NCBI GenBank assembly: GCA_947095585.1 | Contig: OX352761.1 | Coordinates: 67,486,316 to 67,550,315, forward strand | Length of the DNA stretch: 64,000 nucleotides | Origin: Nephrocerus scutellatus | Lineage: Eukaryota; Arthropoda; Insecta; Diptera; Pipunculidae | Direction: 5' to 3' | In this document: one piece after another, positions 30,136 to 64,000 of the stretch | Layout: each line of letters starts with the position of its first letter | Numbering within the stretch: the first letter of the stretch is position 1 | Made by a program: the position numbers and the translations under genes | Notes under the pieces: model-generated | What the model was told of the DNA's origin: nothing | Seen by the model: the letters and a program-made list of their open reading frames with translations, nothing else | Databases searched by the model: none

Positions 30136-31380
30136 TGTAACGAGGTTTTCCAGCTGGGGTTGACCTCAGTGTGACCAGGGTTCAATTACAAAAAAACAAT
30201 TATTTAGTGAAAGTAAAAGTACAAAGTACTCATACTCTTGTTCCTAGAATTAGGGAAAGAACGGGTTAATGGAAATGGCAAGAAAATACTCTTAAGCCAC
30301 TGTAGCTGAAAATGAAGATTTATTCATTAAGTGTTGATACAAGTACAAAGTACTCATACCCTTTGTTCCTAGAAGTAGGGAAAGAACGGGTTAATGGTAG
30401 TGGCAAGGAAGTACTCTTAAGCCACTGTAGCTGCAAATGAAGATATATTAGCGTTAAGTATATCAATGAAGTACTTACTAGCTAAATACAAGGTGCAGAA
30501 TACTTAGTATTTTGAACTCTTGGGTGAGGTTTCGGAAATCTCCTATAGCGTTTAGCGTGGAGGTAATAGCAAGGTAGGTACTCTTGAACTATTAGTCGAG
30601 GACTTGGATTTTACAGCGTTTAGCTCGGAAGTAATAGCAAGGTAGGTACTCTTGAACTATTAGCTTAGGACTTGGTTCTTGCAGGCTTTAGTTCAACAGT
30701 AATAGCAAGGTAGGTACTCTTGAACTATTAGTTGTGAACTCGGGAAGAATAAGCCTTCTGGTTGAGCTGCGTGCTCCTTTTATACTTTTTCCGTTGTTAG
30801 AAAATAGTGCTATGCGGCTTGGTTTTCCGTTGGTGTAACGGTCGGGCTAAGTTAGCGCGAGCTATCTCATGATAATGGCATACATACCGTCTTGTGACTG
30901 GAGTCAGTTACTCACCCTATAAATCATGAATTTTTTTTGTAACTGTGGTGTACATACATGGAATAGTCGGTTGAGCACGATACCGCATCGAAAGAAAGAG
31001 GAACCTAAATCCATTCGAAGATGGTACAGTCAGCGTCATAGTTGCAGAAGATGTCAATGCACGTAGCTGTATAGATGCTGTAGATGTATAGACTAACGCT
31101 TGCTTACACCCGAAATGCAAGAAAAAAGAAACAAAGGAGAACACAAAAGAAAGCTATGGAAGAAAGCGATGGGAAAATACTGGCTCGGGTATCGACTGTA
31201 GGAACTGGCGTTGGCAAATTTATGATTGAGTATCGGTCAGTGGGATTTTATCAATGCTAACGATAAGTCGCAGCTCGTCCAGTCTGGTGGTCTAGAAATT
31301 AGCCTGAGTGGGCATTTTTCTATTTTTTTGTTATCGGTGGAATTTGTTTGTCGTTGAACGGGAAGTAAGCTCGTGCAGTG
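30136..31380 (-). mobile_element. gypsy-C 5' LTR, right end not resolved
   Basis: Starts tgtaacgaggttttccagctgg beside the primer site. It contains two ~121-bp direct repeats (30205-30480), then a 68-bp minisatellite (aatagcaaggtaggtactcttgaactattag; 30571, 30639, 30707), and a TATA-like ttttata at about 30779-30785 (element strand TATAAAA). Compared with the LTR at 2069 it keeps the minisatellite but diverges after ~30840. I could not find an end matching the cctcaca terminus, so the right boundary is approximate. The 31380-31555 stretch up to the palindrome is unassigned AT-rich sequence with a 14-C run near 31482. Confidence 0.6.
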
Positions 31381-46900: not shown

Positions 46901-47931
46901 CTGATCTCAACGACCCCGAAAACTAAAGGATCAACACTGATATCGGTCACCTCCGGGGAGACAACTTACCCATTGGAGTGTCCTACCAAGACTATTAATC
47001 TCAGTGGTCCCGAAAACTATGGAATGGACACTAATATCGGTCGGCCCCCTCAGTTATCGACCCCATCCCCCTATAGCTGTCTTACCATCACCATTCAACT
47101 CAGCGACCCCGAAAACCATAAAATCGACACTAATATCGTTCACCCCCCCTCAGTTATCGACCCCATCCCCCTAGAGGTGTCTTACCATCACCATTCAACT
47201 CAGCGACCCCGAAAACCATAGAATCATTACTAATATCGGTTACCCCAACCCCCCCCCCCCCCCCCCCTCAGTTATCGACCCCATCCCCCTAGAGCTGTCT
47301 TACCATCACCATTCAACTCAGCGACCCCGAAAACCATAGAATGGATACTAATATCGGTCACCCCCCCCCCACAGTTATCGACACCATCCCCCTAGAGCTG
47401 TATTACCATCACCATTCAACTCAGCGACCCCTAAAACTATAGAATCGACACTAATATCAGTCACCCCCCCTCAGTTATCGACCCCATCCCCCTAGAGGTG
47501 TCTTACCATCACCATTCACAGTATTCAATTCAGCGACCCCGAAAACCCTAGAATCATTACTAATATCGGTAACCCCAACCCCCCCTCAGTTATCGACCCC
47601 ATCCCCCTAGAGCTGACTTACCATTCAACTCAGCGACCCCAAAAACCATAGAATCGATACTAATATCGGCCAACCCCCCTCCCCCCCACCCTCAGTTATC
47701 GACTCCATCCCCCTAGAGCTGTATTACCATCACCATTCAACTCAGCGACCCCTAAAACGATAGCATCGACACTAATATCAGTCACCCTCCCCACCCAAGT
47801 TATCGACACCATCCCACTAGAGGTGTCTTACCATCACCATTCAATTCAGCGACCCCGAAAACCATAGAATCGATAGTAATATCGGTGACCCCAACCCCCT
47901 CTCAGATATCGACCCTGGTCACACTGAGTTT
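46900..47931. repeat. C-rich tandem array, ~100-120-bp unit, about nine copies
   Basis: The unit includes tcagttatcgaccccatccccctagagctgtcttaccatcaccattcaactcagcgaccccgaaaaccatagaatcgacactaatatcggtcacccc. The cagttatcgacccc core recurs at about 47051, 47151, 47270, 47372, 47471, 47588, 47692 and 47804. Length differences come mainly from poly-C runs of 4 to 18. It lies between the Helitron fragment and an LTR of gypsy-B. A short plus-strand frame (46973-47221) is just the repeat translated. Confidence 0.85.
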
Positions 47932-47993
47932 TTTCCAGCCGGGGTAAAACTCAGTGTGACCAGGGTTACTTCTACTTCTAGGGTCGTTACAAT
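47932..47993. repeat. Inverted repeat at the truncated gypsy-B LTR end
   Basis: accctggtcacactgagtt (47932-47950) is the reverse complement of aactcagtgtgaccagggt (about 47949-47967), separated by ttttccagccggggta. The normal LTR terminus tgtaacgaggttttccc is missing here, so the terminus was replaced by an inverted copy of nearby LTR sequence. Confidence 0.8.
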
Positions 47994-48125
47994 AAAAGAA
48001 TTTGTTTGTTTAGGGAATGGAATTCAAGCGTTTTCATTATTTCTTCCTTTTCTTCGCTTAATCCGTATACTTAAACTATTATTAACTTAAAACTATGTAT
48101 AATATTAAATTGTGTTTGTTTGGCA

Positions 48126-48690
48126 AGGATTTCACTCTTGCACTCTCGGTCGTGAGGTGGTCTTACTAGCGTAAAGCGTGGACGTGAAGGCAAGGATTTC
48201 ACTCTTGCACTCTCGGTCGTGAGGATAATTGTACTAGCGTAGAGCGTGGATGTGAAGGCAAGGATTTCACTCTTGCGCTTTCGATCGTTAGGATAATTGT
48301 ATTAGCGTGAAGCGTGGCTGTGAAGGCAAGGATATCACTCTTGCGCTTTCGATCGTTAGGATAATTGTACTAGCGTGAAGCGTAGCTGTGAAGGCCAGGA
48401 TTTCGCTCTTGCGCTTTCGATCGTGAGGATAATTGTACTAGCGTGAAGCGTGGCTGTGAAGGCAAGGATTTCGCTCTTGCGCTTTCGATCGTGACGATAA
48501 TTGTACTAGCGTGAAGCGTGGATGTGAAGGCAAGGATTTCGCTCTTGCGCTTTCGATCGTGAGGATAATGGTACTAGCGCAAAGCGTGGCTGTGAAGGCA
48601 AGGATTTCGCTCTTGCGCTTTCGATCGTGAGGATAATGGTACTAGCGTACAGCGTGGATGTAAAAGCAGGGATTTCACTCTTGCACTTCC
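48126..48690. repeat. 68-bp minisatellite of the gypsy-B LTR leader
   Basis: The core aaggatttc begins near 48126, 48191, 48259, 48327, 48395, 48463, 48531 and 48599, a spacing of 68 bp after the first. It lies downstream of the LTR TATA on the element strand, thus in the transcribed leader. Confidence 0.85.
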
Positions 48691-49254
48691 GATCGTACAC
48701 TTGTTGCCGGGAGGAGGAATCTCTAGGAAAGAGGACCGATTGTTGGGACTGCTGGCCTTTTATACTCTTCCGTCGAGGGAAGGAGTCCCGTTAATGCTAC
48801 GATAGCCGAGTCCGTTAAATCGTATGATCGGTCGATGGTGTATCGTTGTTTTTGTTTCCTTTGTATTACTATAGGAGTCCATTAAATCATACGATCGACC
48901 AGTGGTGTATTGTTGTTCCTACCTTTGTTTTGGCATTGTTGTTGTTGTTTGTTGTTGGTCGGTTAGCATTGCTGCGCTTGATGGCTTGTTGCTCCCAGGT
49001 CCCGTTGTTGCAACGATAGGGAAATCAGTTAAATCATACGATCGACCAGTGGTGTAGCGTTGTTGTTGCCTCCATCGACCCTATGTTGTTTTTTGGTTTT
49101 CCTGGTCACCATGCATTGCGTGCTGTTTGTTGTTGTTGTAACTCTCTACTTGTCTAAGAATACTGCTAACTGCGAAGTGCATGCGGCCATGTATTGCATA
49201 TTGTTTGTTGTTGTTTCTTGAATCGACATCGATCGGATCTTCCGAGTCTGTGAT

Positions 49255-49258
49255 GTTT
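49255..49258. repeat. 4-bp target-site duplication of gypsy-A (GTTT), left copy
   Basis: gttt occurs here and at 59752-59755, directly outside the two LTR ends. Four bases is usual for Ty3/Gypsy integrases. Confidence 0.85.
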
Positions 49259-49539
49259 TGTAACGAGGTTTTCCCAGCCGGGGTAGAACTCAGTGTGACC
49301 AGGGTTCCTTCTATTAGGGTCGTTACAATAAAAAGAATTTATTTTTAGTTGGGAATGGAATTCAATCGTTCTTTATTTGTTCTTCGCTTAATCTGTATAC
49401 TTAAAATTATTGTTTGCCTAAAGCTATATATATTATCTTACTGTATTGGTTTCAATTATGATAAAAGGAGAACGGCGTATCTCCAGGAGGGATGATGGTC
49501 TGTTCTCGCGTAGAGCGTGGACGTGAAGGCAAGGTCTTC

Positions 49540-50285
49540 GCTCTTGAACCTCCAATCGCGTGGATAATGTCTAGCGTAAAGCGTGAGCGTGAAGGCAAAG
49601 ACTTCGCTCTTGAACCTCCAATCTAGCGTAAAGCGTGGATAATGTCTAGCGTAAAGCGTGGGCGTGAAGGCAAGGACTTCGCTCTTGAACCTCCAATCTA
49701 GCGTAAAGCGTGGATAATGTCTAGCGTAAAGCGTGGGCGTGAAGGCAAGGACTTCGCTCTTGAACCTCCAATCTAGCGTAAAGCGTGGATAATGTCTAGC
49801 GTAAAGCGTGGGCGTGAAGGCAAGGACTTCGCTCTTGAACCTCCAATCTAGCGTAAAGCGTGGGTAATGTCTAGCGTAAAGCGTGGGCGTGAAGGCAAGG
49901 ACTTCGCTCTTGAACCTCCAATCTAGCGTAAAGCGTGGGTAATGTCTAGCGTAAAGCGTGGGCGTGAAGGCAAGGACTTCGCTCTTGAACCTCCAATCTA
50001 GCGTAAAGCGTGGATACTGTCTAGCGTAAAGCGTGGGCGTGAAGGCAAGGACTTCGCTCTTGAACCTCCAATCTAGCGTAAAGCGTGGGTAATGTCTAGC
50101 GTAAAGCGTGGGCGTGAAGGCAAGGACTTCGCTCTTGAACCTCCAATCTAGCGTAAAGCGTGGATACTGTCTAGCGTAAAGCGTGGGCGTGAAGGCAAGG
50201 ACTTCGCTCTTGAACCTCCAATCGTTAGGATAACTACTGGCGTAAAGTGTAAAGTGAAGGCAAGGACTTCGCTCTTGAACCATTC
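49540..50285. repeat. 75-bp minisatellite of the gypsy-A 3' LTR leader
   Basis: The unit contains ctagcgtaaagcgtgg(a/g)ta(a/c)tgtctagcgtaaagcgtgggcgtgaaggcaaggacttcgctcttgaacctccaat. Cttgaacctcc recurs at 75-bp steps through eight to nine copies after a first 66-bp step. Inside each unit the ctagcgtaaagcgtgg block is itself doubled. Because 75 is a multiple of three, the minus strand stays open for 275 codons as a 25-residue repeat. Confidence 0.9.
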
Positions 50286-50350
50286 ACTCTGACTTGTTGC
50301 CGGGAAGAGGGATTTCTAGGAAAGAAGACCGATTGTTAGGACTGCTGGCC

Positions 50351-50357
50351 TTTTATA
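50351..50357 (-). promoter_or_regulatory. TATA box of the gypsy-A LTR
   Basis: The element strand reads CTATAAAAGGCC. The same box lies at 58749-58755 in the 5' LTR, and TATAAAA-type boxes sit at the equivalent place in gypsy-B (~48757) and gypsy-C (~30779). It lies just upstream of the minisatellite, so transcription would begin about 25-30 bp further and include it. Confidence 0.65.
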
Positions 50358-51444
50358 GTCCTCCATCGAGTGTAGAAATCCCGTTGTTGCAACGATCGTG
50401 AAATCCGCTAACTCGCCTGATGGTGTGCTGTTGTTGTTGTTTCCTTTGATGTGATATGGTTGTTGTTGTTTTGTCCGGCTGGTCAGTATTGCTGCGCTCG
50501 GCGGTCTATTGGTTCGTGATCCCGTTGGTGCAACGATAGGGAAATCCGCTACGTCACATGATCGGTGGGACTTGGTAGTGTTGTTGTTGCCTCTTTGATG
50601 TTTGTTAGTTCCAAGATCCCGTTGATGCAACGATAGGGAAATCCGCTACGTCACATGATCGGTGGGACTTGGTAGTGTTGTTGTTGCCTCTTTGATGTTT
50701 GTTAGTTCCAAGATCCCGTTGATGCAAAATTAGGGAACTCCGCTACATTGCATGATCGGTGTAGTGTTGTTGTTGGTTTGCCTCGAAAATGCGTGCTGTC
50801 GTACATTGTGTGTTGTTTGTTGTTGTTTTTTTCTTTTGGTTGTCTAATGATGCTGCAGACTTCTGATTGTCCGCTATCATATTTTGCATGCTGTTTGTTG
50901 TTGCCTTTTACGTGGGTCTGCGCCGTCTTACACTGCATGCTTTGTTGTTGTTGTTCTCCTTGACTTGTCTGATGCAAAATGTATGCATGTTGTTTGTTGT
51001 TGTTTTGAATATTGGTCGGGTATTCTGTGTCTGTGGTGCTGTATGCCTGCTGTTGTTGTTTTCTACGATGATGCTGTGTGCTTCTGCATGTATTGTGAGT
51101 CACGAGCGGGGTATCCCTAGGCTGTGTGGTCTGGTGCTGTATGTGTGTCGTCATTCTCTCACTCAGCTGCTTGATGATGGCGTGCATTGGTTGTGCGTGG
51201 TGAATTTACGCGTTGTGAAATATAGAGAACCTGTGTATCATAAGCCGAGAGTAATTTCGGCGAGTAATTTACCACTTAAAAGAGTGGGAAACATGTTGCT
51301 AGGTTTAAGAACATTATGGTAAACGTTTCTTTGTAATGTGTATGCAAGTTTTTTTTATTAAATTCAAAAGAAAGTGTTGTTTACAAAAAGATGGTTGCGT
51401 ACCAAAAATAATGTGTGGAAAAAATTGTGTGGCAAATTTTCCCT

Positions 51445-52815
51445 TCACACCTCCCCCTTACTTCGACGGATGCTGATCTTTCCCTTCCTGGTGACTAGCA
51501 CTCCAAGTCGGGTCTTGTCCTGCACATGGAAGAAGTGTATCCTTCGTAGTTCTCCCGCTTGTACTCTCGCCTTTGCCGTATCTATCTTGGCCTGGAGTTC
51601 ATGGGATACGGTTTCGCTTATGGTCTCTTCTTTGTGCACTATGTCACTCCCTGTGAGTGACAGGACATCTTCCTGTCGTCGGGTCGTCGCGGTTTTTGGT
51701 GGGTTGTTCCTGTCTGGTCCGGGTTCGAGGAGGCCTGTCGGCGGGGTGAAACTTCTTTCCCTCGGTTTGTTGTTGTGGCTGCCACTGCTACTGCTACTGC
51801 TACTACGGTTGCTGCTGTTGCTCCCACTACTGCTGCTGCTGCGGGTACTGTTGCTACTACTGTCACTGCTGCTGCTACTGCTATCGTGTCTGCTGCGGCT
51901 GCGGTAGCGGTGGCGAGTGCGGCGCGGAGTTTTTGGCCTGCTGCGGTTGACTCTTTCTCGGATGTTACAGTCTATGTCGTCATCGCCTAATCCGAGATCT
52001 GGAAACTTAATTGCTGGGTCGGCGCTTCTTTGGATGAGGTTGGCAAGCATTCCCCGTTTCTGTCCGGCGCTGTCCGGCGACATCCTCTGGCCTGGCGAGT
52101 CGGGTCCTGACAGTCCCCAGGTGAGGACTTTCTCCGCTGCTTCCAGTAAAAATGCGCCACAATCCACCCCATTTCGCTGTTGTGGCATCTCCATGTGTCG
52201 GCCTGGGTATGAGTCCTGGAACTCTGCCCACGTCCAGTGATGTCCCTTCGATAGGTGCTGTTGCACGACGTAGCCGCGAATTATCTCAATGGCCTCGTTC
52301 CTCGGTGTTTTGGCCCACGAATCGTACACATCAATGGTGGCACGGTGAGGTCTCCCCGGGTTGGTAACCACCACGAGGTACCAATGGTTGCCGTCGCAAA
52401 TGGGCACTAAAACCAGGTCTTTCCTGATGAGGTCCTTGTGCCGGTCCCACCTGCTCACTAGTGCGTGTCGCCTAATGGCCGTTGACTCGGGGCTCTCCTG
52501 CTGATCTGGCTGGTACTGCTGCATCCGTGAGAAGAGGAATGTGCTGCAGATCCTGATTCTCTCCCGGTGGCTTTCCTCCATCCTTCTCTCTAACCACCTG
52601 AGTCCGACTCCCACCAGAACGTCGTTGAAGTATACCCCTTTCTTTAGTCGGCAGTAGTCGGCCATTCGCACATCGATGCCACCTGGCCCTGGAGGAAAAC
52701 TTCCGATCACCTGGTTTAACTCGGCGTCTCCGGATGCGTGAATCGTGTTTGTGGCTTCCATGCAGATGCGTTGTATGGCTTCGTTGTCTATCTTGGGTGT
52801 CCTCTGGGTATTCAT
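51445..52815 (-). CDS. gypsy-A ORF3: C48/Ulp1-like cysteine protease with Ser/Arg-rich tail
   Basis: 456 residues at the position usually held by an envelope gene. Residues ~47-235 match the Ulp1/SENP fold in order: DYCRLKKGVYFNDVLVGVGL (like the LND substrate-entry motif), ICSTFLFSRM, DLVLVPICDGNHWYLVVV with His144, IDVYDSW with Asp165, and PQQRNGVDCGAFLLEAAEKV with Gln213 and Cys219. That is a complete His-Asp-Gln-Cys catalytic set. Residues ~285-350 are Arg/Ser-rich, followed by a Lys/Glu-rich end. No signal peptide or membrane helix, so it is not an envelope; the product is likely nuclear or cytoplasmic. The stop (TGA) is completed by the first LTR bases. Ulp1 proteases process SUMO or ubiquitin-like proteins; the actual substrate here is unknown. 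Confidence 0.85.
   Translation of the reverse strand: MNTQRTPKIDNEAIQRICMEATNTIHASGDAELNQVIGSFPPGPGGIDVRMADYCRLKKGVYFNDVLVGVGLRWLERRMEESHRERIRICSTFLFSRMQQYQPDQQESPESTAIRRHALVSRWDRHKDLIRKDLVLVPICDGNHWYLVVVTNPGRPHRATIDVYDSWAKTPRNEAIEIIRGYVVQQHLSKGHHWTWAEFQDSYPGRHMEMPQQRNGVDCGAFLLEAAEKVLTWGLSGPDSPGQRMSPDSAGQKRGMLANLIQRSADPAIKFPDLGLGDDDIDCNIRERVNRSRPKTPRRTRHRYRSRSRHDSSSSSSDSSSNSTRSSSSSGSNSSNRSSSSSSSGSHNNKPRERSFTPPTGLLEPGPDRNNPPKTATTRRQEDVLSLTGSDIVHKEETISETVSHELQAKIDTAKARVQAGELRRIHFFHVQDKTRLGVLVTRKGKISIRRSKGEV
51450..51463 (-). promoter_or_regulatory. gypsy-A polypurine tract
   Basis: The element strand reads aagtaagggggagg immediately before the LTR start TGTGAAGGG, giving the plus-strand primer of reverse transcription. 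It overlaps the last codons of ORF3. Confidence 0.8.
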
Positions 52816-53105
52816 CTTGTAAAAATTTTGTTGGTTTTGGTTTTGTTTACGATGTCTGGATACACTGAGTAATCACTTGAGACTAATTTTTACTTGTTGT
52901 GTGTACTTGAAACGAAAACAAGTTGCGGGACCTGTACTCCGTTATTTTCTTCTTCTGGTGTAGTTTACTTCGTTGTTTCAGCATTGGGGTGTCGTGGTGT
53001 TACTTTGGATGTGTTGTCTTTTCTTTCTTTTCCCAAGTTGATATCATAGTTTCTGTAATTTAACTCTTTTGGTTACAGATGGGATCGTCAAATGCCGTTT
53101 CAGTG
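52816..53105 (-). other. gypsy-A pol-ORF3 spacer
   Basis: 290 bp without a frame, A-rich on the element strand. The sequence before the ORF3 Met (aaatttttacaag) could act as a 3' splice site for a subgenomic ORF3 message, but this is a guess. Confidence 0.4.
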
Positions 53106-54887
53106 TCAGTGTGTTGCTGACGTATTGCTCTGGATTTCGATGATGATGCTATTGATCGCTGTCGCATTTTCGTCATGCCCCTGACTTCTCTCTCCCGCTT
53201 GTGTTCTTTTGTGTGGTCGTCTTGAGGTTTGTTGCCGATTGTTTTGTCTTGTGGTTTTTAATGGAACGATGTTCTGTTCATGGTTCCCCGTCCCAGACCG
53301 CCAGTTGCGCGGGTGATTATACCATTCGTGCTGATGTTTGCTGCCGTGTTGTATCACTATGGGCTCGTTAGAGTGTTGGGTGTGGGGTGTCACTGTTATT
53401 GCGATGCGGTTTGTCTTCTCTGGTTCGGGTGGGGAGTTTCCGTGGAAGTCTTTCAACTCATTGACGTGGGCTGTGCGCTCCTTGTTTTGCCCATGTTTCC
53501 TTAGCCTTACTATGACAGGTGAGACGAAGCTCATCACTAAGTATGGCCCGTCGTATCGTAGTGCTAGTTTACTAGCGAACCCTTCCACTGCCTTTGATAG
53601 GTGGTGCTGTTTGACCAGCACCAGATTTCCGATCTCGGGCTTCCCAGGACGTCGTCTGAGGTTGTAGTGGCGGGCTTGATCCTTCGCAGCTCGTTCTAAG
53701 TTTCGTCGCACGATCTCGAAGATCTCGTTCATCTGGGTCTTTCGGTCCTCTGGTTTTTTACCTAGTGTGCCCGTCCCAGGAGTGATCTCGTCGTACAGCG
53801 TGTTCGGGAGGCGGGGTTCTCGGCCCTGCGTCAGGAATGCCGGGCTGTATCCCGTTGAGTCCTGTACGCTTGAATTTATTGCTAGCATAACTTCGGGCAG
53901 CTTCTCGTCCCAAGTGCGTTGTTGCGTTCCCGCTAGTTGTGCAATTATTGTTTTAGCGGTGCGGTTGACCCTTTCAGTGGGATTTTCTTGGGGGGTATAT
54001 GGCGCTGTAAATTGCTGGCGTATGCCCATGGTCTCCAAGAATCGACGAAATGCCCTGCTACTGAATTGCGCCCCGTTGTCTGTTATCAGGATCTTGGGTA
54101 CGCCGTATCGGGCCAGTATACGTTCGCGAAAAGCCCGTTGGACTCCTTCGGTCGTTGCCCTTCGCATTGGAATCAGTTCGACCCATTTCGAAAACCGATC
54201 AAAGAAAACCAGTAACATGGTATTTCCGTGTTTCGACCTAGGGAGTGGCCCAACGAAGTCACTACACAATGTGGCCCATGGTTCGTCGGCCACCTGGGTA
54301 AGCATTTTACCTGCTGCTTGCTGTTGGCTGGGTTTGTAGCACTGGCAGCTTTCACATTTCTTTACATACTGACGAATGTCACGAAACATACCCGGCCAAT
54401 AGTAGCGACCGCATATTCTCGCCGTGGTCTTCCGGATCCCCAGGTGCCCTGCTGATGCGCTGTCATGGTTTTCCTGCAGTACCCGACTTCGAAGGTTACT
54501 CGGCACACACAGTTTCCACGGTGTTGAGTCCTCGTCTCCGGCTCGATGCCCTATGTGTCGATACAGCTGCTGGCCTTCGATCACGTAGTCGGGGAATTTG
54601 GCTGGGTTCTCTGTGACCTGCTGGACCTTCTTTCGCAGCCAGTGGCACTTCTGTTGCTCTACGTGTTCCTCGGAGGTTGCCATCAGTGTTTCTTGCGGCT
54701 GTCTTGATAGAGCGTCTGCAACGACGTTGAGTTTGCCCCGCCTGTACTGTATGTCGTATGTATACTGCTGTAGTTCTAGCGCCCACCGTGCGATCCGGCC
54801 GGACGTGCTGGATATCGAGTTTAGCCATTTGAGCGAGAGGTGGTCTGTTATTACTGTAAACCTATACCCTTCGATGTATGCCCGCAT
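53106..54887 (-). CDS. gypsy-A pol: RNase H end and integrase
   Basis: A 593-residue frame that continues the RT frame after one frameshift at ~54915, where a base seems lost within NYSPTEKECLAIVW. RNase H motifs are TVITDHLSLKWL and VADALSR. The integrase has the zinc domain (HLGIRKTTARICGRYYWPG, CESCQCYK) and the DDE core: Asp210 in SDFVGPL, Asp270 in TDNGAQF and Glu305 in NPTERVNR, with the D-35-E spacing of Ty3/Gypsy. A GPY/F-type module (RYDGPYLVMSF) follows. The C-terminal ~100 residues are polar and unassigned. The start codon shown is internal to the real polyprotein. Confidence 0.9.
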   Translation of the reverse strand: MRAYIEGYRFTVITDHLSLKWLNSISSTSGRIARWALELQQYTYDIQYRRGKLNVVADALSRQPQETLMATSEEHVEQQKCHWLRKKVQQVTENPAKFPDYVIEGQQLYRHIGHRAGDEDSTPWKLCVPSNLRSRVLQENHDSASAGHLGIRKTTARICGRYYWPGMFRDIRQYVKKCESCQCYKPSQQQAAGKMLTQVADEPWATLCSDFVGPLPRSKHGNTMLLVFFDRFSKWVELIPMRRATTEGVQRAFRERILARYGVPKILITDNGAQFSSRAFRRFLETMGIRQQFTAPYTPQENPTERVNRTAKTIIAQLAGTQQRTWDEKLPEVMLAINSSVQDSTGYSPAFLTQGREPRLPNTLYDEITPGTGTLGKKPEDRKTQMNEIFEIVRRNLERAAKDQARHYNLRRRPGKPEIGNLVLVKQHHLSKAVEGFASKLALRYDGPYLVMSFVSPVIVRLRKHGQNKERTAHVNELKDFHGNSPPEPEKTNRIAITVTPHTQHSNEPIVIQHGSKHQHEWYNHPRNWRSGTGNHEQNIVPLKTTRQNNRQQTSRRPHKRTQAGERSQGHDENATAINSIIIEIQSNTSATH

Positions 54888-54892
54888 CTTCC

Positions 54893-56608
54893 TTATTCCC
54901 CATACGATGGCCAGGCATTCCTTTTCGTCGGCGAGTAGTTCTTCTCTGCGGGGTTTAGGTGTCGACTGGCATACGCTATGACCCGTTCACTGTCGTCTAT
55001 CTCCTGGGTGAGGACTGCTCCTAAACCATAATCGCTGGCATCCGTCTGGAGTGTGAACTTCTTAGAGAAATCGGGGCAGGCCAGGATTGGGGCCTCGGTA
55101 AGTTTAACTTTGAGTGCTTCGAATGCTTGCTGCTGCTCTTCTCCCCACTTCCAGTGCTTGCCTTTCTTGAGGAGGCTCGTCATCGGTCGCACGGTCTCGG
55201 CGAAATCTGGAACAAATCGGCGGTACCATGAAGCGATGCCCAGGTACCGGCGTACCTCTCGTACATTACTCGGGGGTTGGAGCTCTTTGATGGCCGCTAT
55301 TTTGTCGGGGTCAGTGTGTATGCCTTTGTTACTGACCACGTGTCCCAAGTACCGTATTTCCGTTTTGCAGAACTCACATTTTTCCGGGTTAATTTTTAGG
55401 TTAGCCATCTGCAATCGCCTGAACACCTTGCGCAGATTTCCCATGTGTTCGTCAAACGTTCTCCCGATGACGACTATGTCGTCAAGATATGCAAACGCAT
55501 GGGGCTCCATCTCTGGTCCGATGACTCGATCGAGCGCTCGCTGGAAGGTCGCAGGGGCCGAATGTAGCCCAAACGGCATCACGCGCCATTGGAACAAGCC
55601 ACGGCCGGGTACCGTGAAGGCGGTGTACTGCTTACTCTTCTCCTCCATGGGGATTTGCCAATATCCATTTCTCAGGTCCAGACTACTGATGAATTTGGCA
55701 CCGCGAAGCTTTTCTAGAATGTGTTGGATTCGTGGCAGGGGGTATGCGTCGGGCACTGATCGTGCATTCAGTTCTCGATAGTCGATACATAGTCTCCATT
55801 TGCCCGTCTTCTTTCGCACGAGAACTATGGGCGCGCTGTGGGGGCTATGTGAAGGCTCGATACATCCTTTTTCCAACAACTCGTCGATCTCTGTATTTAT
55901 TATTTCCTGCATGGCTGGATTACGGGGGAAGTAGCGCTGCTTTATTGGGCGTTCGTCGTGCATGATGATTCTGTGTTCCGTGATGTTGGAAACGGCGGGT
56001 AGTTGATCAAATTTCTTGAATTCTTGTTGCAGAAACGCTGAAAGCTGTTCCTGTTCTGTCCGTGGTGTTTCTTGCGTGGTGGTGCATTGTCGGATGTGTT
56101 CTGCGGGCGTTGTTCTGTGCTGTAATTTTATGGTCTGGCCACCGCAGCTTAGACGGGCCTCCACCCGTGACAAAAAGTCCAGACCTAAGATTACTTCATC
56201 CATTGCATCTGGGAGAATCAAGAATGGAAACTGTATCTCCCTATTACCTATCTCGACATCTAACTGTAGGGCCTCTCGGATCAACTTGGATGTCCCTTCG
56301 GCCATCCGTACGGTCACATCCATGGGTAGACTCTTTGTTGTCCCCCTTTTGTCTTCTGCAAAACGTTCGCTCACAAAACTCCTAGTAGCCCCTGTGTCAA
56401 TCGTAGCTTTTACCGGCGTCCCTCCTAGGGTGATGGTGGCGAGGATCCGGTTGGAATCGTAGGCAAGGAAGTTTACTGGGCCCGGGGTGTCGGTCTTGGG
56501 GTTTCCGTCGCACCACGGTTTCGGCGGTCCCCTTGCTCGTTTCCTGGTCGTTCGACGCGTTTCCGGCAGCATTCCACGGTCCGAACATTTCGAAGGCCGC
56601 AGTCCCAA
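54893..56608 (-). CDS. gypsy-A pol: protease and reverse transcriptase
   Basis: A 571-residue frame overlapping gag by ~135 bp in another frame, so pol is likely made by frameshifting. The protease has TIDTGATRSFV (DTG at 56390-56398) and VILGLDFL. The RT shows KWRLCIDYRELN, FISSLDLRNGYWQI (first Asp), RVMPFGLHSAPATFQ and an intact YLDD box (55478-55489). The connection/RNase H start follows with FTLQTDASDYGLGAVL. The frame ends at 54893 only because of a single-base lesion; the same protein continues in the 54887 frame. Apart from this, all catalytic residues are present. Confidence 0.9.
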   Translation of the reverse strand: MGLRPSKCSDRGMLPETRRTTRKRARGPPKPWCDGNPKTDTPGPVNFLAYDSNRILATITLGGTPVKATIDTGATRSFVSERFAEDKRGTTKSLPMDVTVRMAEGTSKLIREALQLDVEIGNREIQFPFLILPDAMDEVILGLDFLSRVEARLSCGGQTIKLQHRTTPAEHIRQCTTTQETPRTEQEQLSAFLQQEFKKFDQLPAVSNITEHRIIMHDERPIKQRYFPRNPAMQEIINTEIDELLEKGCIEPSHSPHSAPIVLVRKKTGKWRLCIDYRELNARSVPDAYPLPRIQHILEKLRGAKFISSLDLRNGYWQIPMEEKSKQYTAFTVPGRGLFQWRVMPFGLHSAPATFQRALDRVIGPEMEPHAFAYLDDIVVIGRTFDEHMGNLRKVFRRLQMANLKINPEKCEFCKTEIRYLGHVVSNKGIHTDPDKIAAIKELQPPSNVREVRRYLGIASWYRRFVPDFAETVRPMTSLLKKGKHWKWGEEQQQAFEALKVKLTEAPILACPDFSKKFTLQTDASDYGLGAVLTQEIDDSERVIAYASRHLNPAEKNYSPTKRNAWPSYGE

Positions 56609-57582
56609 CAGAAGATGGTTTGGGGGTTACGACAGTCCCGCCTCATGTGTCCGTCCTGGCCACATCGCAGGCAAGCCGTCCTTACGTTTATTCGCGCTTC
56701 CATATTTTGTGCTACCATGAAATTCCTTTCGGGTTGTCTGGGTCGGGGCGAGGGTTTGATAGGTTCTGCTGCACCAGCGATGCCTTCGAAATCTTCTGCC
56801 AGACTGATGAGTTCGTGGAGGTCTCTAAAATCCTTCCTCCGGATATAGTACTGGTACTCTTGGCGACAGTTTCGGAAGATCCTTTCGACCTGTTGTGTAC
56901 CGGTGTAGTTTGCGTGCCTCATGAGGTTCTGCATTATGATTACGAAATCCTTGAAGCGCTCCTTTGGCTTTTGCTGGCGTTGACGAATTTCGTCTTCTAG
57001 ATGTTCCCAGTACCTGGAGGGCAGGAAGAACTGTAGAAAATCTGTCGTGAAGGCGTTCCAGGTCTCCCATTTTCGGTTGTTGTTTCGGAACCATAATAAC
57101 GCGCGGTCACGGAGTAGTTCCGGCATGGTTCTGGGTAGAAGGTCCCTGTTTAAACAGTAGGCATCCGCAAGTTCTTCTAGCCTTTCGATGAATAGGAGAG
57201 GCTCCTTACCACCATCGTACTTCACCGACCACTTCCTCACCTGGTCCATTATTTGAGCGTACGACGTAACTGTCGTGTCCGTTCTGCTTCGCGTTGGAAC
57301 CATTTCCGGTGGTGCCGGAGAGATTGCCCTGATGGTTGCCTTTGGGTCGTCGCCTACCGTGGCTTCAGATGGATTCAAGGCTGGTGATGGGCTGCGTCTA
57401 TGCTTCTCCTCGAGCTCACTTAGGCGTATCTCGTCCTCCGACGTAACGTCTCGTCCCGAAACAAAGCTGGAAAACCTTTTCCTTAAATCTTCCACTGCGC
57501 CGTTGCTGTCGATTCGGAACTCGCTCATGTAGCTCTTCAGCTCCTCTTTCGACAGTGTATAAATCCAACTGGTCTTAACCAT
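56473..57582 (-). CDS. gypsy-A Gag
   Basis: 369 residues starting MVKTSWIYTLSKEELKSYM, the first Met after the primer site. The N-terminal ~60 residues resemble a SAP-like helix-loop-helix (LRKRFSSFVSG). Residues ~130-260 are the retrotransposon capsid domain (LLRDRALLWFRNNNRKWETW, FLPSRYWEHLEDEI). A CCHC knuckle is at residues 304-317 (CLRCGQDGHMRRDC), and a second Cys cluster at 325-338 (CWDCGLRNVRTVEC). The same protein, more decayed, is found in gypsy-B and gypsy-C. Open over its full length. Confidence 0.9.
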   Translation of the reverse strand: MVKTSWIYTLSKEELKSYMSEFRIDSNGAVEDLRKRFSSFVSGRDVTSEDEIRLSELEEKHRRSPSPALNPSEATVGDDPKATIRAISPAPPEMVPTRSRTDTTVTSYAQIMDQVRKWSVKYDGGKEPLLFIERLEELADAYCLNRDLLPRTMPELLRDRALLWFRNNNRKWETWNAFTTDFLQFFLPSRYWEHLEDEIRQRQQKPKERFKDFVIIMQNLMRHANYTGTQQVERIFRNCRQEYQYYIRRKDFRDLHELISLAEDFEGIAGAAEPIKPSPRPRQPERNFMVAQNMEARINVRTACLRCGQDGHMRRDCRNPQTIFCWDCGLRNVRTVECCRKRVERPGNEQGDRRNRGATETPRPTPRAQ

Positions 57583-57646
57583 CGTGGTTATCTAATTGTG
57601 TTCTTTCTTTATTGGTATATTTTTTTTTTCTCTATCAAATTCCAGA

Positions 57647-57664
57647 GTCCCTGCTCGGGCGCCA
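57647..57664 (-). promoter_or_regulatory. gypsy-A primer-binding site, tRNA-Lys type
   Basis: The element strand reads TGGCGCCCGAGCAGGGAC, two bases from the LTR. It differs at one base from the well-known tRNA-Lys3 primer complement TGGCGCCCGAACAGGGAC. The same site occurs in gypsy-B at 62362-62379 and 63493-63510. Confidence 0.85.
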
Positions 57665-57666
57665 AT

Positions 57667-59751
57667 TGTAACGAGGTTTTCCCAGCCGGGGTAGAACTCA
57701 GTGTGACCAGGGTTCCTTCTATTAGGGTCGTTACAATAAAAAGAATTTATTTTTAGTTGGGAATGGAATTCAATCGTTCTTTATTTGTTCTTCGCTTAAT
57801 CTGTATACTTAAAATTATTGTTTGCCTAAAGCTATATATATTATCTTACTGTATTGGTTTCAATTATGATAAAAGGAGAACGGCGTATCTCCAGGAGGGA
57901 TGATAGTCTGTTCTCGCGTAGAGCGTGGACGTGAAGGCAAGGTCTTCGCTCTTGAACCTCCAATCGCGTGGATAATGTCTAGCGTAAAGCGTGAGCGTGA
58001 AGGCAAGGACTTCGCTCTTGAACCTCCAATCTAGCGTAAAGCGTGGATAATGTCTAGCGTAAAGCGTGGGCGTGAAGGCAAGGACTTCGCTTTGAACCTC
58101 CAATCTAGCGTAAAGCGTGGATAATGTCTAGCGTAAAGCGTGGGCGTGAAGGCAAGGACTTCGCTCTTGAACCTCCAATCGCGTGGATAATGTCTAGCGT
58201 AAAGCGTGGGCGTGAAGGCAAGGACTTCGCTCTTGAACCTCCAATCTAGCGTAAAGCGTGGGTAATGTCTAGCGTAAAGCGTGGGCGTGAAGGCAAGGAC
58301 TTCGCTCTTGAACCTCCAATCTAGCGTAAAGCGTGGGTAATGTCTAGCGTAAAGCGTGGGCGTGAAGGCAAGGACTTCGCTCTTGAACCTCCAATCTAGC
58401 GTAAAGCGTGGATACTGTCTAGCGTAAAGCGTGGGCGTGAAGGCAAGGACTTCGCTCTTGAACCTCCAATATAGCGTAAAGCGTGGGTAATGTCTAGCGT
58501 AAAGCGTGGGCGTGAAGGCAAGGACTTCGCTCTTGAACCTCCAATCTAGCGTAAAGCGTGGATACTGTCTAGCGTAAAGCGTGGGCGTGAAGGCAAGGAC
58601 TTCGCTCTTGAACCTCCAATCGTTAGGATAACTACTGGCGTAAAGTGTAAAGTGAAGGCAAGGACTTCGCTCTTGAACCATTCACTCTGACTTGTTGCCG
58701 GGAAGAGGGATTTCTAGGAAAGAAGACCGATTGTTAGGACTGCTGGCCTTTTATAGTCCTCCATCGAGTGTAGAAATCCCGTTGTTGCAACGATCGTGAA
58801 ATCCGCTAACTCGCCTGATGGTGTGCTGTTGTTGTTGTTTCCTTTGATGTGATATGGTTGTTGTTGTTTTGTCCGGCCGGTCAGTATTGCTGCGCTCGGC
58901 GGTCTATTGGTTCGTGATCCCGTTGGTGCAACGATAGGGAAATCCGCTACGTCACATGATCGGTGGGACTTGGTAGTGTTGTTGTTGCCTCTTTGATGTT
59001 TGTTAGTTCCAAGATCCCGTTGATGCAAAATTAGGGAACACCGCTACATCGCATGATCGGTGTAGTGTTGTTGTTGGTTTGCCTCGAAAATGCGTGCTGT
59101 CGTACATTGTGTGTTGTTTGTTGTTGTTTTTTTCTTTTGGTTGTCTGATGATGCTGCAGACTTCTGATTGTCCGCTATCATATTTTGCATGCTGTTTGTT
59201 GTTGCCTTTTACGTGGGTCTGCGCCGTCTTACACTGCATGCTTTGTTGTTGTTGTTCTCCTTGACTTGTCTGATGCAAAATGTATGCATGTTGTTTGTTG
59301 TTGTTTTGAATATTGGTCGGGTATTCTGTGTCTGTGGTGCTGTATGCCTGCTGTTGTTGTTTTCTACGATGATGCTGTGTGCTTCTGCATGTATTGTGAG
59401 TCACGAGCGGGGTATCCCTAGGCTGTGTGGTCTGGTGCTGTATGTGTGTCGTCATTCTCTCACTCAGCTGCTTGATGATGGCGTGCATTGGTTGTGCGTG
59501 GTGAATTTACGCGTTGTGAAATATAGAGAACCTGTGTATCATAAGCCGAGAGTAATTTCGGCGAGTAATTTACCACTTAAAAGAGTGGGAAACATGTTGC
59601 TAGGTTTAAGAACATTATGGTAAACGTTTCTTTGTAATGTGTATGCAAGTTTTTTTTTATTAAATTCAAAAGAAAGTGTTGTTTACAAAAAGATGGTTGC
59701 GTACCAAAAATAATGTGTGGAAAAAATTGTGTGGCAAATTTTCCCTTCACA
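57667..59751 (-). mobile_element. gypsy-A 5' LTR (2085 bp)
   Basis: Same ends as the 3' LTR. It carries the 75-bp minisatellite (about 57945-58625) with slightly different unit content, TATA at 58749-58755 and one copy of the 97-bp unit. Differences from the 3' LTR seen by eye are mainly this missing 97-bp copy and a ~9-bp net change in the minisatellite. Frames through it on either strand are translations of repeats. Confidence 0.9.
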
Positions 59752-59755
59752 GTTT

Positions 59756-60546: not shown

Positions 60547-62298
60547 TTACTTTCGTAATCTTTTGTGCTTGCTTGGCGGTGCGGCTAATGAAGACTGCGA
60601 TTTTGACGACTTTGACGTCTTTGACGACTGTGACGACTTTGACGACTTTGACGACTTTGCCGACTGTGACGACTTTGACGACTTTGACAACTGTGACGGC
60701 TGTAGCGACTGTGACGACTTTGACGACTTTAACGACTGTGACGACTTTGACGACTTTGACGACTGCAACTTTAGCGGCTGCTGCATCTTTGAAAGTTGTG
60801 GTAGCTTTGGTTCTTGGAGTGTGTTGCAAGTCCGAAGTTTAACTGGCCGCGCTGGCCTAGTTTGGAGTGTTATACACTCACTTCCGAAGCTTAACGTGGC
60901 TGTGGATCTTGTTAGAAAGTCCATCCCCAGTGTGAGGGCATCAGCGGCGGTCGGTAACACCAGCAAGCGCATTAAGCATGAGGACTTCCCAAAGCGAAAG
61001 TTGACGTTCAACTCTTCGCGGACTGTCGTCTGACCCCCGTTGGCCATTTGAATTGGGATGTGCACAGGGGTTGTGTTGTCCAAATTTCGGAGTCTCTCAG
61101 CCAAAAGTTCGTTCACGAAACTGCGGTATGCGCCGGTGTCGATGGTGGCCTGTACGGTTTCGCGGCCGATGATGATGCGAGCGAGAAGTCGATTTTGGTC
61201 ATGGATCAGGGATGTGTTCTTGTTTGACTGGAGCGAATGACGCTGCTCAACGTGTGAAATACGTTGACGGCAGCAGTCCATTGTCCTGATACTCCGTAGG
61301 CCGCAATCCCAACAGAAAATCACCCGTAATTTAGGGCACTCCTGTTGAAAGTGACCTTCCTGTCGGCACAATCGACAAGTCGTTCGGGGATTGTATAGTT
61401 CTTCTTCAGGCTGACTCACCATGCAATGCCTTTCCTGTGGACTTCTTCGAGATGTCGTCGTTATGCTGTCCTGGTTTTCCTGAATACTTTCAAAGACCTC
61501 TGCCAGGCTAATGAGTTCTTTGAGATTGTGAAAGTCCTCTCTTCGGATATAAAGCTGGTATTCTCGCCGGCAATTCCGGAAGATCCTCTCGACCTGTTGT
61601 GTAGTGGTGTAGTTCGCGTGCCTCATGAGATTTTGCATGATGATGACGAAATCCTTGAAGCGCTCCTTTGGCTTTTGCTGGCGTTGACGAATTTCGTCTT
61701 CCAGATGTTCCCAGTACCTTGAAGGCAGGAAGAACTGTAGGAAGTCTGTCGTGAAGGCGTTCCAGGTTTCCCATTTTCGGTTGTTGTTGCGGAACCATAA
61801 TAACGCGCGGTCACGGAGTAGTTCCGGCATGGTTCTTGGCAGGAGGTCCCTGTTTAAACAGTAGGCATCCGCCAGTTCTTCTAGCCTTTCGATGAACAGA
61901 AGAGGCTCCTTACCCCCATCGTATCTCACTTACCACTTCCTCACTTGGTCCATTATCTGAGCGTACGATGTAACTGTCGTGTCCGTCCTGCTTCGCGTGG
62001 GAACCAGTCCCGGTGGTGTCGGAGATGTTGCCCTGATGGTTGTCTTTAGTTCGTCGCGTGCCGTAGCTTCAGACGGGTTTAGAGTTATCAGGGGCACTGG
62101 TGACGGGCCGTGTCTATGCTTCTCCTCGAGCTCACTTAGGCGTATCTCGTCCTCCGACGTAACGTCTCGTCCCGAAACAAAGCTGGAAAACCTTTTCCTT
62201 AACTCTTCCACTGCGCCGTTGTTGTCGATTCGGAACTCGCTCATGTAGCTCTTCAGCTACTCTTTTGACAGTGTATAAATCCAACTGGTCTTAACCAT
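60547..62298 (-). pseudogene. gypsy-B Gag and protease, with stops
   Basis: Gag starts at ATG 62298 (KTSWIY). A TAG near 62262 replaces a glutamate codon and a TAA at 61930-61932 interrupts RKW-VRYDGG. 61929-60547 then reads the capsid domain (LLRDRALLWFRNNNRKWETW), a CCHC knuckle (CRLCRQEGHFQQEC), CWDCGLRSIRTMDC, and an aspartic protease with TIDTGAYRSFV and LTLGMDFL. After TCNTLQEPKLPQL it enters a Ser/Lys/Gln repeat region and ends. RT and integrase are missing. Confidence 0.85.
60590..60780. repeat. Minisatellite of gacgactttgac units in gypsy-B
   Basis: Tandem 9-15-bp units of gacgactttgac, gactgtgac and variants. All frames stay open: the element strand encodes SKSSKSSQSLKSS-type peptide in frame with protease, and the opposite strand an Asp/Phe-rich peptide. 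Confidence 0.85.
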
Positions 62299-62381
62299 CG
62301 TGGTTATCTAATTGTGTTCTTCCTTTATTGGTATAATTTATTTTCTCTATCACATTCCAGGGTCCCTGCTCGGGCGCCAAT

Positions 62382-62640
62382 TGTTACGAGGGTTTTCCCA
62401 GCCGGGGTAAATCTCAGTGTGACCAGGGTTCCTTCTTCTTCTAGGGTCATTACAATAAAAGAATTTGTTTGTTTAGGGAATGGAATTCAAGCGTTTTTAT
62501 TATTTCTTCCTTTTCTTCGCTTAATCCGTATACTTAAACTATTATTGACTTAAAACTATGTAGAATACTGCTACTGCGAAGTGCATGCGGCCATGTATTG
62601 CATATTGTTTCTTGAATCGACATCGATCGGATTTTCCGAG
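62382..62640 (-). mobile_element. gypsy-B LTR, internally deleted copy
   Basis: Starts tgttacgagggttttcccagcc beside a primer site (62362-62379). At ~62565 it jumps from LTR leader to the distal tactgcgaagtgcatgcggcc part (equivalent to 49165 onward), so the minisatellite and most of the LTR are gone. At ~62640 it joins gag sequence rather than a normal LTR end. Confidence 0.8.
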
Positions 62641-63429
62641 TCTGTGTTGTTTGAGATTGTGAAAGTCCTCTCTTCGGATATAAAGCTGGTATTCTCGCCG
62701 GCAATTCCGGAAGATCCTCTCGACCTGTTGTGTAGTGGTGTAGTTCGCGTGCCTCATGAGATTTTGCATGATGATGACGAAATCCTTGAAGCGCTCCTTT
62801 GGCTTTTGCTGGCGTTGACGAATTTCGTCTTCCAGATGTTCCCAGTACCTTGAAGGCAGGAAGAACTGTAGGAAGTCTGTCGTGAAGGCGTTCCAGGTTT
62901 CCCATTTTCGGTTGTTGTTGCGGAACCATAATAACGCGCGGTCACGGAGTAGTTCCGGCATGGTTCTTGGCAGGAGGTCCCTGTTTAAACAGTAGGCATC
63001 CGCCAGTTCTTCTAGCCTTTCGATGAACAGAAGAGGCTCCTTACCCCCATCGTATCTCACTTACCACTTCCTCACTTGGTCCATTATCTGAGCGTACGAT
63101 GTAACTGTCGTGTCCGTCCTGCTTCGCGTGGGAACCAGTCCCGGTGGTGTCGGAGATGTTGCCCTGATGGTTGTCTTTAGTTCGTCGCGTGCCGTAGCTT
63201 CAGACGGGTTTAGAGTTATCAGGGGCACTGGTGACGGGCCGTGTCTATGCTTCTCCTCGAGCTCACTTAGGCGTATCTCGTCCTCCGACGTAACGTCTCG
63301 TCCCGAAACAAAGCTGGAAAACCTTTTCCTTAACTCTTCCACTGCGCCGTTGTTGTCGATTCGGAACTCGCTCATGTAGCTCTTCAGCTCCTCTTTTGAC
63401 AGTGTATAAATCCAACTGGTCTTAACCAT
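62641..63429 (-). pseudogene. gypsy-B partial Gag, duplicated copy
   Basis: Repeats 61517-62298 at an offset of 1131 bp with almost no differences. It shares the TAA between RKW and VRYDGG (63061-63063) but lacks the extra TAG found near 62262. Gag starts at 63429. The frame 63060-62542 runs from capsid into LTR sequence, showing the chimeric joint. Confidence 0.9.
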
Positions 63430-63512
63430 CGTGGTTATCTAATTGTGTTCTTCCTTTATTGGTATAATTTATTTTCTCTATCACATTCCAGGGTCCCTGC
63501 TCGGGCGCCAAT

Positions 63513-64000
63513 TGTTACGAGGGTTTTCCCAGCCGGGGTAAATCTCAGTGTGACCAGGGTTCCTTCTTCTTCTAAGGTCATTACAATAAAAGAATTTGTT
63601 TGTTTAGGGAATGGAATTCAAGCGTTTTTATTATTTCTTCCTTTTCTTCGCTTAATCCGTATACTTAAACTATTATTGACTTAAAACTATGTATAATATT
63701 AAATTGTGTTTGTCAGGCAAGGATTTCACTCTTGCACTCTCGGTCGTGAGGATAATTGTGCTAGTACCAGTTGTGTATTGTTGTTGCTACCTTTGTTTTG
63801 GCATTGTTGTTGTTGTTTGTTGTTGGTCGGTTAGCATTGCTGCGCTTGATGGCTTGTTGTTCCCAGGTCCCGTTGATGCAACGATAGGGAAATCCGTTAA
63901 ATCATACGATCGACCAGTGTTGTTGTTGCCTCCGTCGACCCTATGTTGTTTGTTGGTTTTCCTGGTCACCATGCATTGCGTGCTGTTTGTTGTTGTTGTA
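63513..64000 (-). mobile_element. gypsy-B LTR running off the window
   Basis: Begins tgttacgagggttttcccagcc after a primer site (63493-63510) and continues past aaggatttcactcttgcactctcgg. Only one minisatellite unit remains before the GTT-rich part (63775 onward, matching 48900-49140). The window ends inside it. Confidence 0.85.

What the first reader, a model, noticed from the sequence alone, without database searches (positions are those of the whole stretch)
51445..52815. A Ty3/Gypsy retrotransposon with an Ulp1/SENP-like protease gene in the envelope position
The third gene of a young, nearly intact element has the C48 cysteine protease motifs in the right order: FNDVLVGVGL, NHW with His144, YDSW with Asp165, and PQQRNGVDCG with Gln213 and Cys219. 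A Ser/Arg-rich tail follows, and there is no signal peptide or membrane anchor. Ulp1-like genes are known in some DNA transposons (for example plant MULEs). I do not know of one established as the third gene of an insect Gypsy element; from memory, the third ORF of Osvaldo-like elements was described as envelope-like. Such a protease could remove SUMO or a related modifier from host silencing factors, or process element proteins. That role is inference.
Basis: partly seen in the sequence, partly recalled or inferred. Interest (0 to 1): 0.88.

Follow-up and report, generated by a model that had tools for sequence, protein, structure and literature searches.

The report
Retrotransposon carrying a SUMO-protease-like gene
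A family of jumping genes in this genome carries, as its third gene, an enzyme that looks like the cell's own SUMO-removing proteases and has kept its active site, which could let the element interfere with the host machinery that silences it.

Summary
Confirmed. The ORF at 51445-52815 (-) matches Pfam Peptidase_C48 (E 6e-25); its best solved relative is human SENP7 (profile E 6e-21). It is the third gene of a Ty3/Gypsy element (59751..49259) with 2.1-2.2 kb LTRs (7 mismatches of 2084), AAAC duplication and tRNA-Lys-type primer site. This copy's pol is frameshifted. The genome holds at least 99 matching stretches (lower bound). I examined 36 sequences: three subfamilies and a variant. All 16 divergent loci have the element's integrase upstream. 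Catalytic His, Gln and Cys are kept in 36 of 36, Asp in 35 of 36. Between subfamilies the domain's dN/dS is 0.09-0.16, so selection maintains the enzyme. A basic Arg/Ser-rich tail suggests a nuclear protein. The likeliest role, removing SUMO or a relative from host nuclear proteins such as silencing factors, is inference. In the papers listed by nine capped searches, C48 genes occur in DNA transposons (MULE, Ginger1, Crypton); none was seen in an LTR retrotransposon. Host SENP genes could not be searched; other species only through limited protein searches.

The parts
57667..59751 (-). 5' LTR, 2085 bp, TG...CA
   Evidence: 7 mismatches of 2084 aligned bases against the 3' LTR
57647..57664 (-). 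primer binding site TGGCGCCCGAGCAGGGAC, tRNA-Lys type (the tRNA assignment is recalled)
   Evidence: identical in 3 of 4 other 5' pieces examined (L037, L039, L040; L038 gave no match)
56473..57582 (-). gag ORF, 369 aa, Retrotrans_gag and a CCHC knuckle (the knuckle just under its Pfam cut-off)
54893..56608 (-). pol, first part: aspartic protease, RT, start of RNase H; this copy's frame ends here by a frameshift
53106..54887 (-). pol, second part: rest of RNase H, integrase zinc finger, rve core, C-terminal domain
52912..52943 (-). 32-nt block in the pol-ORF3 spacer, conserved between subfamilies; candidate splice acceptor region or other RNA or promoter element
   Evidence: alignment of 9 loci; pattern found in 34 of 36 loci
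51445..52815 (-). ORF3, 456 aa, C48 (Ulp/SENP-like) cysteine protease gene; stop codon lies inside the first bases of the 3' LTR
52108..52704 (-). C48 catalytic domain (residues 38-236; the Pfam stretch is 78-230)
52384..52386 (-). catalytic His144
   Evidence: 36 of 36 copies
52321..52323 (-). catalytic Asp165
   Evidence: 35 of 36 copies (L023 has Asn)
52177..52179 (-). oxyanion-hole Gln213
   Evidence: 36 of 36 copies
52159..52161 (-). catalytic Cys219
   Evidence: 36 of 36 copies
51736..51960 (-). basic, Arg/Ser-rich tail (residues 286-360; 30 Ser and 15 Arg of 75)
   Evidence: a basic/Ser-rich tail is seen in the seven copies from three subfamilies shown
51450..51459 (-). polypurine tract AAGGGGGAGG, which is also the last codons of ORF3
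49259..51449 (-). 3' LTR, 2191 bp
59752..59755 (.). target site duplication AAAC, element 5' side
49255..49258 (.). target site duplication AAAC, element 3' side

Best explanation
ORF3 is a real, selectively maintained gene of a long-LTR Ty3/Gypsy family. It encodes a catalytically competent-looking C48 cysteine protease closest, among solved structures, to SENP7 (the SENP6/7-Ulp2 branch), followed by a basic Arg/Ser-rich tail and a conserved C-terminal segment. Shown: the domain, the active-site residues, the third-gene position in every divergent locus examined, and purifying selection. Inferred: it is made from a spliced or otherwise separate message (it lies 290 nt after pol), enters the nucleus through its basic tail, and removes SUMO (less likely NEDD8 or ubiquitin) from host proteins. 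The most attractive targets are SUMO-dependent transposon-silencing factors such as Panoramix; removing SUMO there would ease transcription of the element. Rough sub-probabilities: C48-fold protease gene of the element 0.97; active isopeptidase 0.85; SUMO rather than another modifier 0.7; acts against host silencing 0.45.
Against: No activity, localisation or RNA data. No test of modifier specificity. In yeast the SUMO protease Ulp1, tethered at nuclear pores, restrains Ty1 transcription (PMC8585004, abstract), so the sign of a deSUMOylation effect is not given. The AlphaFold models are weak (mean pLDDT 52.7 and 61.7), and SENP1 was the only other row in their alignments. Among the five young B copies the domain's pooled pN/pS is 0.65, weak constraint. 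A SUMO-interacting-motif-like DVLSL in the tail is not kept strictly (DALSL in C, DVLPF in L024) and a match to the pattern turns up in 376 of 20000 shuffles of the tail, so it is not good evidence. Solved Ulp2 itself scores poorly by sequence (E 0.05), so the placement in the SENP6/7-Ulp2 branch rests on SENP7 alone. No relative of the protein was found outside this genome except one SENP1 at E 1.8e-4 and none in viral contigs; these searches are of limited reach, so spread beyond this genome is barely tested.
Confidence: 0.5

Rival explanations
1. The enzyme works on the element's own proteins: it trims Gag, integrase or their SUMO or ubiquitin conjugates during particle maturation or nuclear entry, as related cysteine proteases do for some DNA viruses (recalled).
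For: Proteases of large DNA viruses appear among the structural neighbours. An element gene under purifying selection must serve the element.
Against: The element already has an aspartic protease in pol, so polyprotein cleavage needs no second enzyme. By sequence the domain is nearer to SENP7 and SENP1 than to the viral proteases, of which the profile search listed none at E up to 1. The basic Arg/Ser-rich tail points to the nucleus.
Confidence: 0.25
2. ORF3 is a nuclear RNA-handling accessory protein (export or splicing control of the genomic RNA, like CERV of Cer1 or retroviral Rev) in which the Arg/Ser tail does the main work and the C48 part binds or trims partners.
For: Arg/Ser-rich tail, with a Pfam SR-25 match in 3 of 7 members (best 1.2e-07; such matches are partly compositional). 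Cer1's CERV shows that a nuclear protein from a spliced retrotransposon message can serve RNA export (PMC10309623, abstract).
Against: The strongest constraint is on the protease domain: whole-ORF dN/dS 0.18-0.23 against 0.09-0.16 for the domain, with the full catalytic set kept. A binding-only role would not require this.
Confidence: 0.15
3. Chance capture: a host SENP fragment carried along by this copy, without function.
For: Retroelements do transduce host genes now and then (general knowledge).
Against: Present in subfamilies at 51-70% protein identity to the window copy, with dN/dS about 0.1 and the catalytic residues, and built into the polypurine tract and LTR boundary.
Confidence: 0.02
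4. ORF3 is an envelope-like protein, as the position would suggest.
For: Position between pol and 3' LTR.
Against: No hydrophobic segment; a C48 enzyme domain fills the first half.
Confidence: 0.01

Closest known systems
SENP6/SENP7-Ulp2 branch of the Ulp/SENP SUMO proteases (Pfam PF02902, peptidase family C48)
   Same: Catalytic domain over its whole length, His-Asp-Gln-Cys in order and alignment; best solved match SENP7.
   Different: Only 24-25% identical to SENP7 in the structural match; yeast-type Ulp2 scores only E 0.05 by sequence; encoded inside a retrotransposon with its own tail; substrate unknown.
Osvaldo lineage of Ty3/Gypsy elements
   Same: LTRs of about 1-2 kb, tRNA-Lys primer site, mostly 4-bp target duplication, as described for mosquito members (PMC3286476, passages and section 13).
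   Different: That paper's table gives one or two ORFs, or 'frag', for its Osvaldo-like elements. In D. melanogaster all 17 lineages with a third ORF carry env and belong to the gypsy/gypsy clade (PMC12992720, passages). RT phylogeny not tested here.
DNA transposons with Ulp1/C48 domains: Mutator-type elements, Ginger1, oomycete CryptonF and some CryptonS
   Same: A mobile element that encodes a C48 domain (PMC2836005, passages; PMC3212892, passages).
   Different: Cut-and-paste or recombinase elements; in Ginger1 the domain is C-terminal in the transposase. Here it is a separate third gene of an LTR retrotransposon.
Bdelloid rotifer LTR retrotransposons with enzymatic ORF3 (GDSL esterase/lipase, DEDDy exonuclease)
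   Same: A captured enzyme in the third-ORF position (PMC5408684, abstract).
   Different: Different enzymes; no C48 protease is named in the abstract.
Giant planarian Gypsy-like elements (Burro)
   Same: A Gypsy-like element with a link to the SUMO pathway: a Ubi2/SUMO-like domain is reported (PMC6431247, passages).
   Different: There it is a SUMO-like fold within a giant polyprotein, not a SUMO protease as a third gene.

Membership tests
Ulp/SENP C48 peptidases | Significant match to the PF02902 catalytic domain | tested here: met
   6.2e-25, 88.7 bits against cut-off 20.7; 7 of 7 members of A3
Ulp/SENP C48 peptidases | Catalytic His-Asp-Cys and oxyanion Gln in order | tested here: met
Ulp/SENP C48 peptidases | Fold of the C48 domain | tested here: met
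Ulp/SENP C48 peptidases | Cleaves SUMO precursors or conjugates | not testable with these tools
   needs the purified enzyme
Ty3/Gypsy LTR retrotransposons | gag, then aspartic protease-RT-RNaseH-integrase in this order between LTRs, with PBS, PPT and TSD | tested here: met
Osvaldo lineage | Long LTRs (about 1-2 kb) and PBS for tRNA-Lys | tested here: met
   2085 and 2191 bp; PBS TGGCGCCCGAGCAGGGAC; the tRNA-Lys 3' end is recalled, not fetched
Osvaldo lineage | Grouping with Osvaldo in an RT-RNaseH-integrase tree | not tested
   no named Osvaldo sequence was on hand
Insect endogenous retroviruses (errantiviruses) | Third gene is an env-F fusion glycoprotein | tested here: not met
   ORF3 has no hydrophobic segment and is a C48 protease

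The most novel reading that the evidence does not exclude
This Gypsy family carries its own SENP7-like deSUMOylase as an anti-silencing weapon: a nuclear third-gene product that strips SUMO from Panoramix-type or other SUMO-dependent repressors and so blunts piRNA-guided transcriptional silencing.
Probability: 0.38. Interest if true: 0.92.

Novelty: new variant of a known kind. Interest (0 to 1): 0.78.

Why it matters
Third genes of retroelements are usually thought of as envelopes. A selectively maintained SUMO-protease-like gene in that place gives an LTR retrotransposon a plausible direct handle on the host's modifier pathway. Panx-mediated transposon silencing in fly cells depends on SUMO (PMC13195609, passages), but I know of no transposon-encoded enzyme shown to counter it (recalled, not searched for). 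The case makes 'do retrotransposons counter-attack the silencing machinery?' directly testable with one enzyme and one catalytic-dead control. C48 genes in Mutator-type, Ginger1 and Crypton elements and now in an LTR element suggest repeated recruitment of the same activity.

Tried and rejected
Protein searches: three against the 5.8-billion-protein set gave one SENP1 at 1.8e-4 and nothing more. In the first only the 7990 candidates sharing most words were scored, probably swamped by words from the Ser tail, and exact-word seeding limits all three, so this does not show that relatives are absent. Viral contigs: no relative of ORF3 or of pol. No ORF3 remnant elsewhere in the window. The envelope idea was dropped (no hydrophobic segment). 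The idea of a SUMO-interacting motif in the tail was dropped (not kept strictly; pattern in 1.9% of shuffles). A spliced ORF3 message is only suggested: the spacer block and the AG near it are shared by subfamilies, but donor candidates inside gag did not give a clear in-frame product when I followed them by eye. Host SENP/Ulp genes could not be looked for: the whole-genome family search did not complete. No named Osvaldo sequence was available for a tree. A tRNA scan of the window found no tRNA, so the primer tRNA is recalled.

Print: nine answered full-text searches of open-licence PubMed Central papers. Each lists only its best 15 to 25 papers (of 36 to 2,157 that held the terms). In these lists, and in the 12 papers of which I saw passages, outline with abstract, or one section, I saw no LTR retrotransposon described with an Ulp1/C48 gene. 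Most listed papers were not opened. Subscription papers, most preprints and Repbase reports were not covered, so a note of it may exist.

Full report
What is there. The ORF at 51445-52815 (-), 456 codons, is the third gene of an LTR retrotransposon that runs from 59751 down to 49259. The LTRs are 2085 and 2191 bp, differ at 7 of 2084 aligned bases plus gaps (one of 97 bases, one of 9, two of 1), and are flanked by AAAC on both sides. The primer site TGGCGCCCGAGCAGGGAC follows the 5' LTR by two bases. Gag (57582..56473) has a Retrotrans_gag domain and a CCHC knuckle just under its Pfam cut-off. Pol carries aspartic protease, RT, RNase H and integrase, but in this copy a frameshift in the RNase H region splits it in two ORFs. 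After a 290-nt spacer comes ORF3. Its last codons are the polypurine tract, and its stop codon lies inside the first bases of the 3' LTR.

Many copies, several subfamilies. In the window's own genome (613 Mb, unnamed) ORF3 has 99 listed matching stretches, some of them two pieces of one place; this is a lower bound, since 93 of 1749 candidates were scored. By my count 36 of the 99, the window's own included, cover residues 1-456 without a stop. I examined 36 sequences: the window's and the 35 loci L002-L036 (L001 is the window's own copy and was dropped). They fall into subfamily A (98-100% identity), B (67-73%; the three used are 68-70%) and C (52-56%; the three used are 51-52%), and one variant, L036 (84%). 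Five of the 36 (L016, L026, L027, L028, L036) have truncated or late-starting frames and were used as far as they go. All 16 divergent loci L021-L036 carry this element's integrase upstream; for L002-L020 this was not looked at. In 33 of 36 loci (L001-L036) the ORF3 stop lies in the TGTGA of the LTR start; in L026, L027 and L028 the frame ends earlier. His144, Gln213 and Cys219 are present in 36 of 36 sequences; Asp165 in 35 of 36, L023 having Asn.

Selection. With Nei-Gojobori counts, the C48 domain (199 codons) has dN/dS 0.088-0.089 between A and B (three pairs; dS 1.06-1.16; bootstrap limits 0.046-0.146) and 0.13-0.16 between A or B and C (four pairs; limits 0.071-0.283; dS 1.8-2.4, near saturation). 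Residues 237-290 and the C-terminus are looser (0.2-0.5 where it could be computed; for residues 237-290 dS was saturated in two pairs). Within subfamilies the pooled pN/pS of the domain is 0.28 (A, 19 copies), 0.65 (B, 5) and 0.21 (C, 7); the B value is weak evidence of constraint among its young copies. For comparison, in 7 of the 16 divergent loci, those whose integrase matched in one piece, the RNaseH-integrase core has 0.036-0.055 and the integrase C-terminus 0.11-0.18. Protein identity to the window in the C48 domain is 82% (L024, B) and 60% (three C copies), against 93-94% and 89% in the integrase core. So the protease evolves faster than the core of pol but under clear constraint, and the order A-B closer than A-C is the same for both genes, as expected if they travelled together.

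How it is probably expressed. The spacer holds a 32-nt block 128-137 nt before the ORF3 start (178 and 278 nt in the late-starting frames L016 and L036), matched by one degenerate pattern in 34 of 36 loci, despite dS above 1 between subfamilies. The pattern was written after seeing the alignment of nine loci. An AG follows the pyrimidine-rich part of the block in A, B and C, and by eye the first ATG after it is the ORF3 start or an in-frame ATG just before it. A spliced message is my inference. A donor candidate within gag is at a similar place in A, B and C but gave no clear in-frame product by eye.

How it may work. The tail suggests a nuclear protein; the domain suggests an isopeptidase for SUMO or a relative. 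In fly ovarian somatic cells the piRNA effector Panx needs SUMOylation to silence, and SUMO fused to it is removed by endogenous deSUMOylating enzymes, with weaker silencing (PMC13195609, passages). An element that supplies its own deSUMOylase could profit. Against a simple reading: in yeast, Ulp1 tethered at nuclear pores restrains Ty1 transcription (PMC8585004, abstract). The main rivals are action on the element's own Gag or integrase, and an RNA-export role like that of CERV of Cer1 (PMC10309623, abstract).

What is known. Ulp1/C48 domains are described in Mutator-type elements and Ginger1 (PMC2836005, passages) and in oomycete CryptonF and some CryptonS (PMC3212892, passages), all DNA transposons. 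Non-envelope enzymes in the third position of LTR elements are known from rotifers: GDSL esterase/lipase and DEDDy exonuclease (PMC5408684, abstract). A giant planarian Gypsy-like element is reported with a SUMO-like domain (PMC6431247, passages). In D. melanogaster all 17 Metaviridae lineages with a third ORF carry env and belong to the gypsy/gypsy clade (PMC12992720, passages). The long LTRs, tRNA-Lys-type primer site and 4-bp duplication fit the Osvaldo lineage as described in mosquitoes (PMC3286476, passages and section 13). Passages of PMC6338049, PMC7264820 and PMC12910113 named no such gene. Nine searches of open-licence papers, each showing only its best 15-25 papers, brought up no LTR retrotransposon with a C48 gene; Repbase reports and subscription papers were not covered.

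Limits. Spread of this gene beyond one genome was tested only by three word-limited protein searches and by scans of viral contigs. Its origin from a host SENP6/7-like gene is untested, because the family search of the genome did not complete (calls listed under Tried and rejected).

Noticed in passing
49558-50223 and 57966-58621 (-), inside the LTRs: About nine copies of a 75-nt (25-codon) tandem unit per LTR, open through one frame (ORFs 49456-50283 and 58031-58681); the two LTRs also differ by a 97-nt gap, the length of the unit of another array at 50518-50761.
   Followed up: no
60547-63699 (-): Gag-like sequence 88-90% identical in DNA to the element's gag, followed by an aspartic protease only 41-42% identical in protein and a Ser/Lys-rich tail; 61512-62000 and 62643-63131 are duplicated at 99.6%. 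Looks like a recombinant or a distinct gag-PR element; no ORF3 remnant found in the window outside the element.
   Followed up: partly
52912-52943 (-): Noncoding 32-nt block conserved between subfamilies whose synonymous sites are near saturation; function undecided.
   Followed up: partly
30136-30183, 2069-2116 and 47926-48863: Ends of related LTRs and a 71-74% identical LTR-like stretch; the first is followed by a primer-site-like sequence and a gag-like stretch (29570-29849).
   Followed up: no
ORF3 copies in the genome: Six matches over residues 1-456 at 95-98% identity hold a single TAG inside ORF3 and two more (94% and 89%) a single TGA; whether the stops are at shared codons, and whether these copies spread by transposition or by segmental duplication, was not checked.
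   Followed up: no
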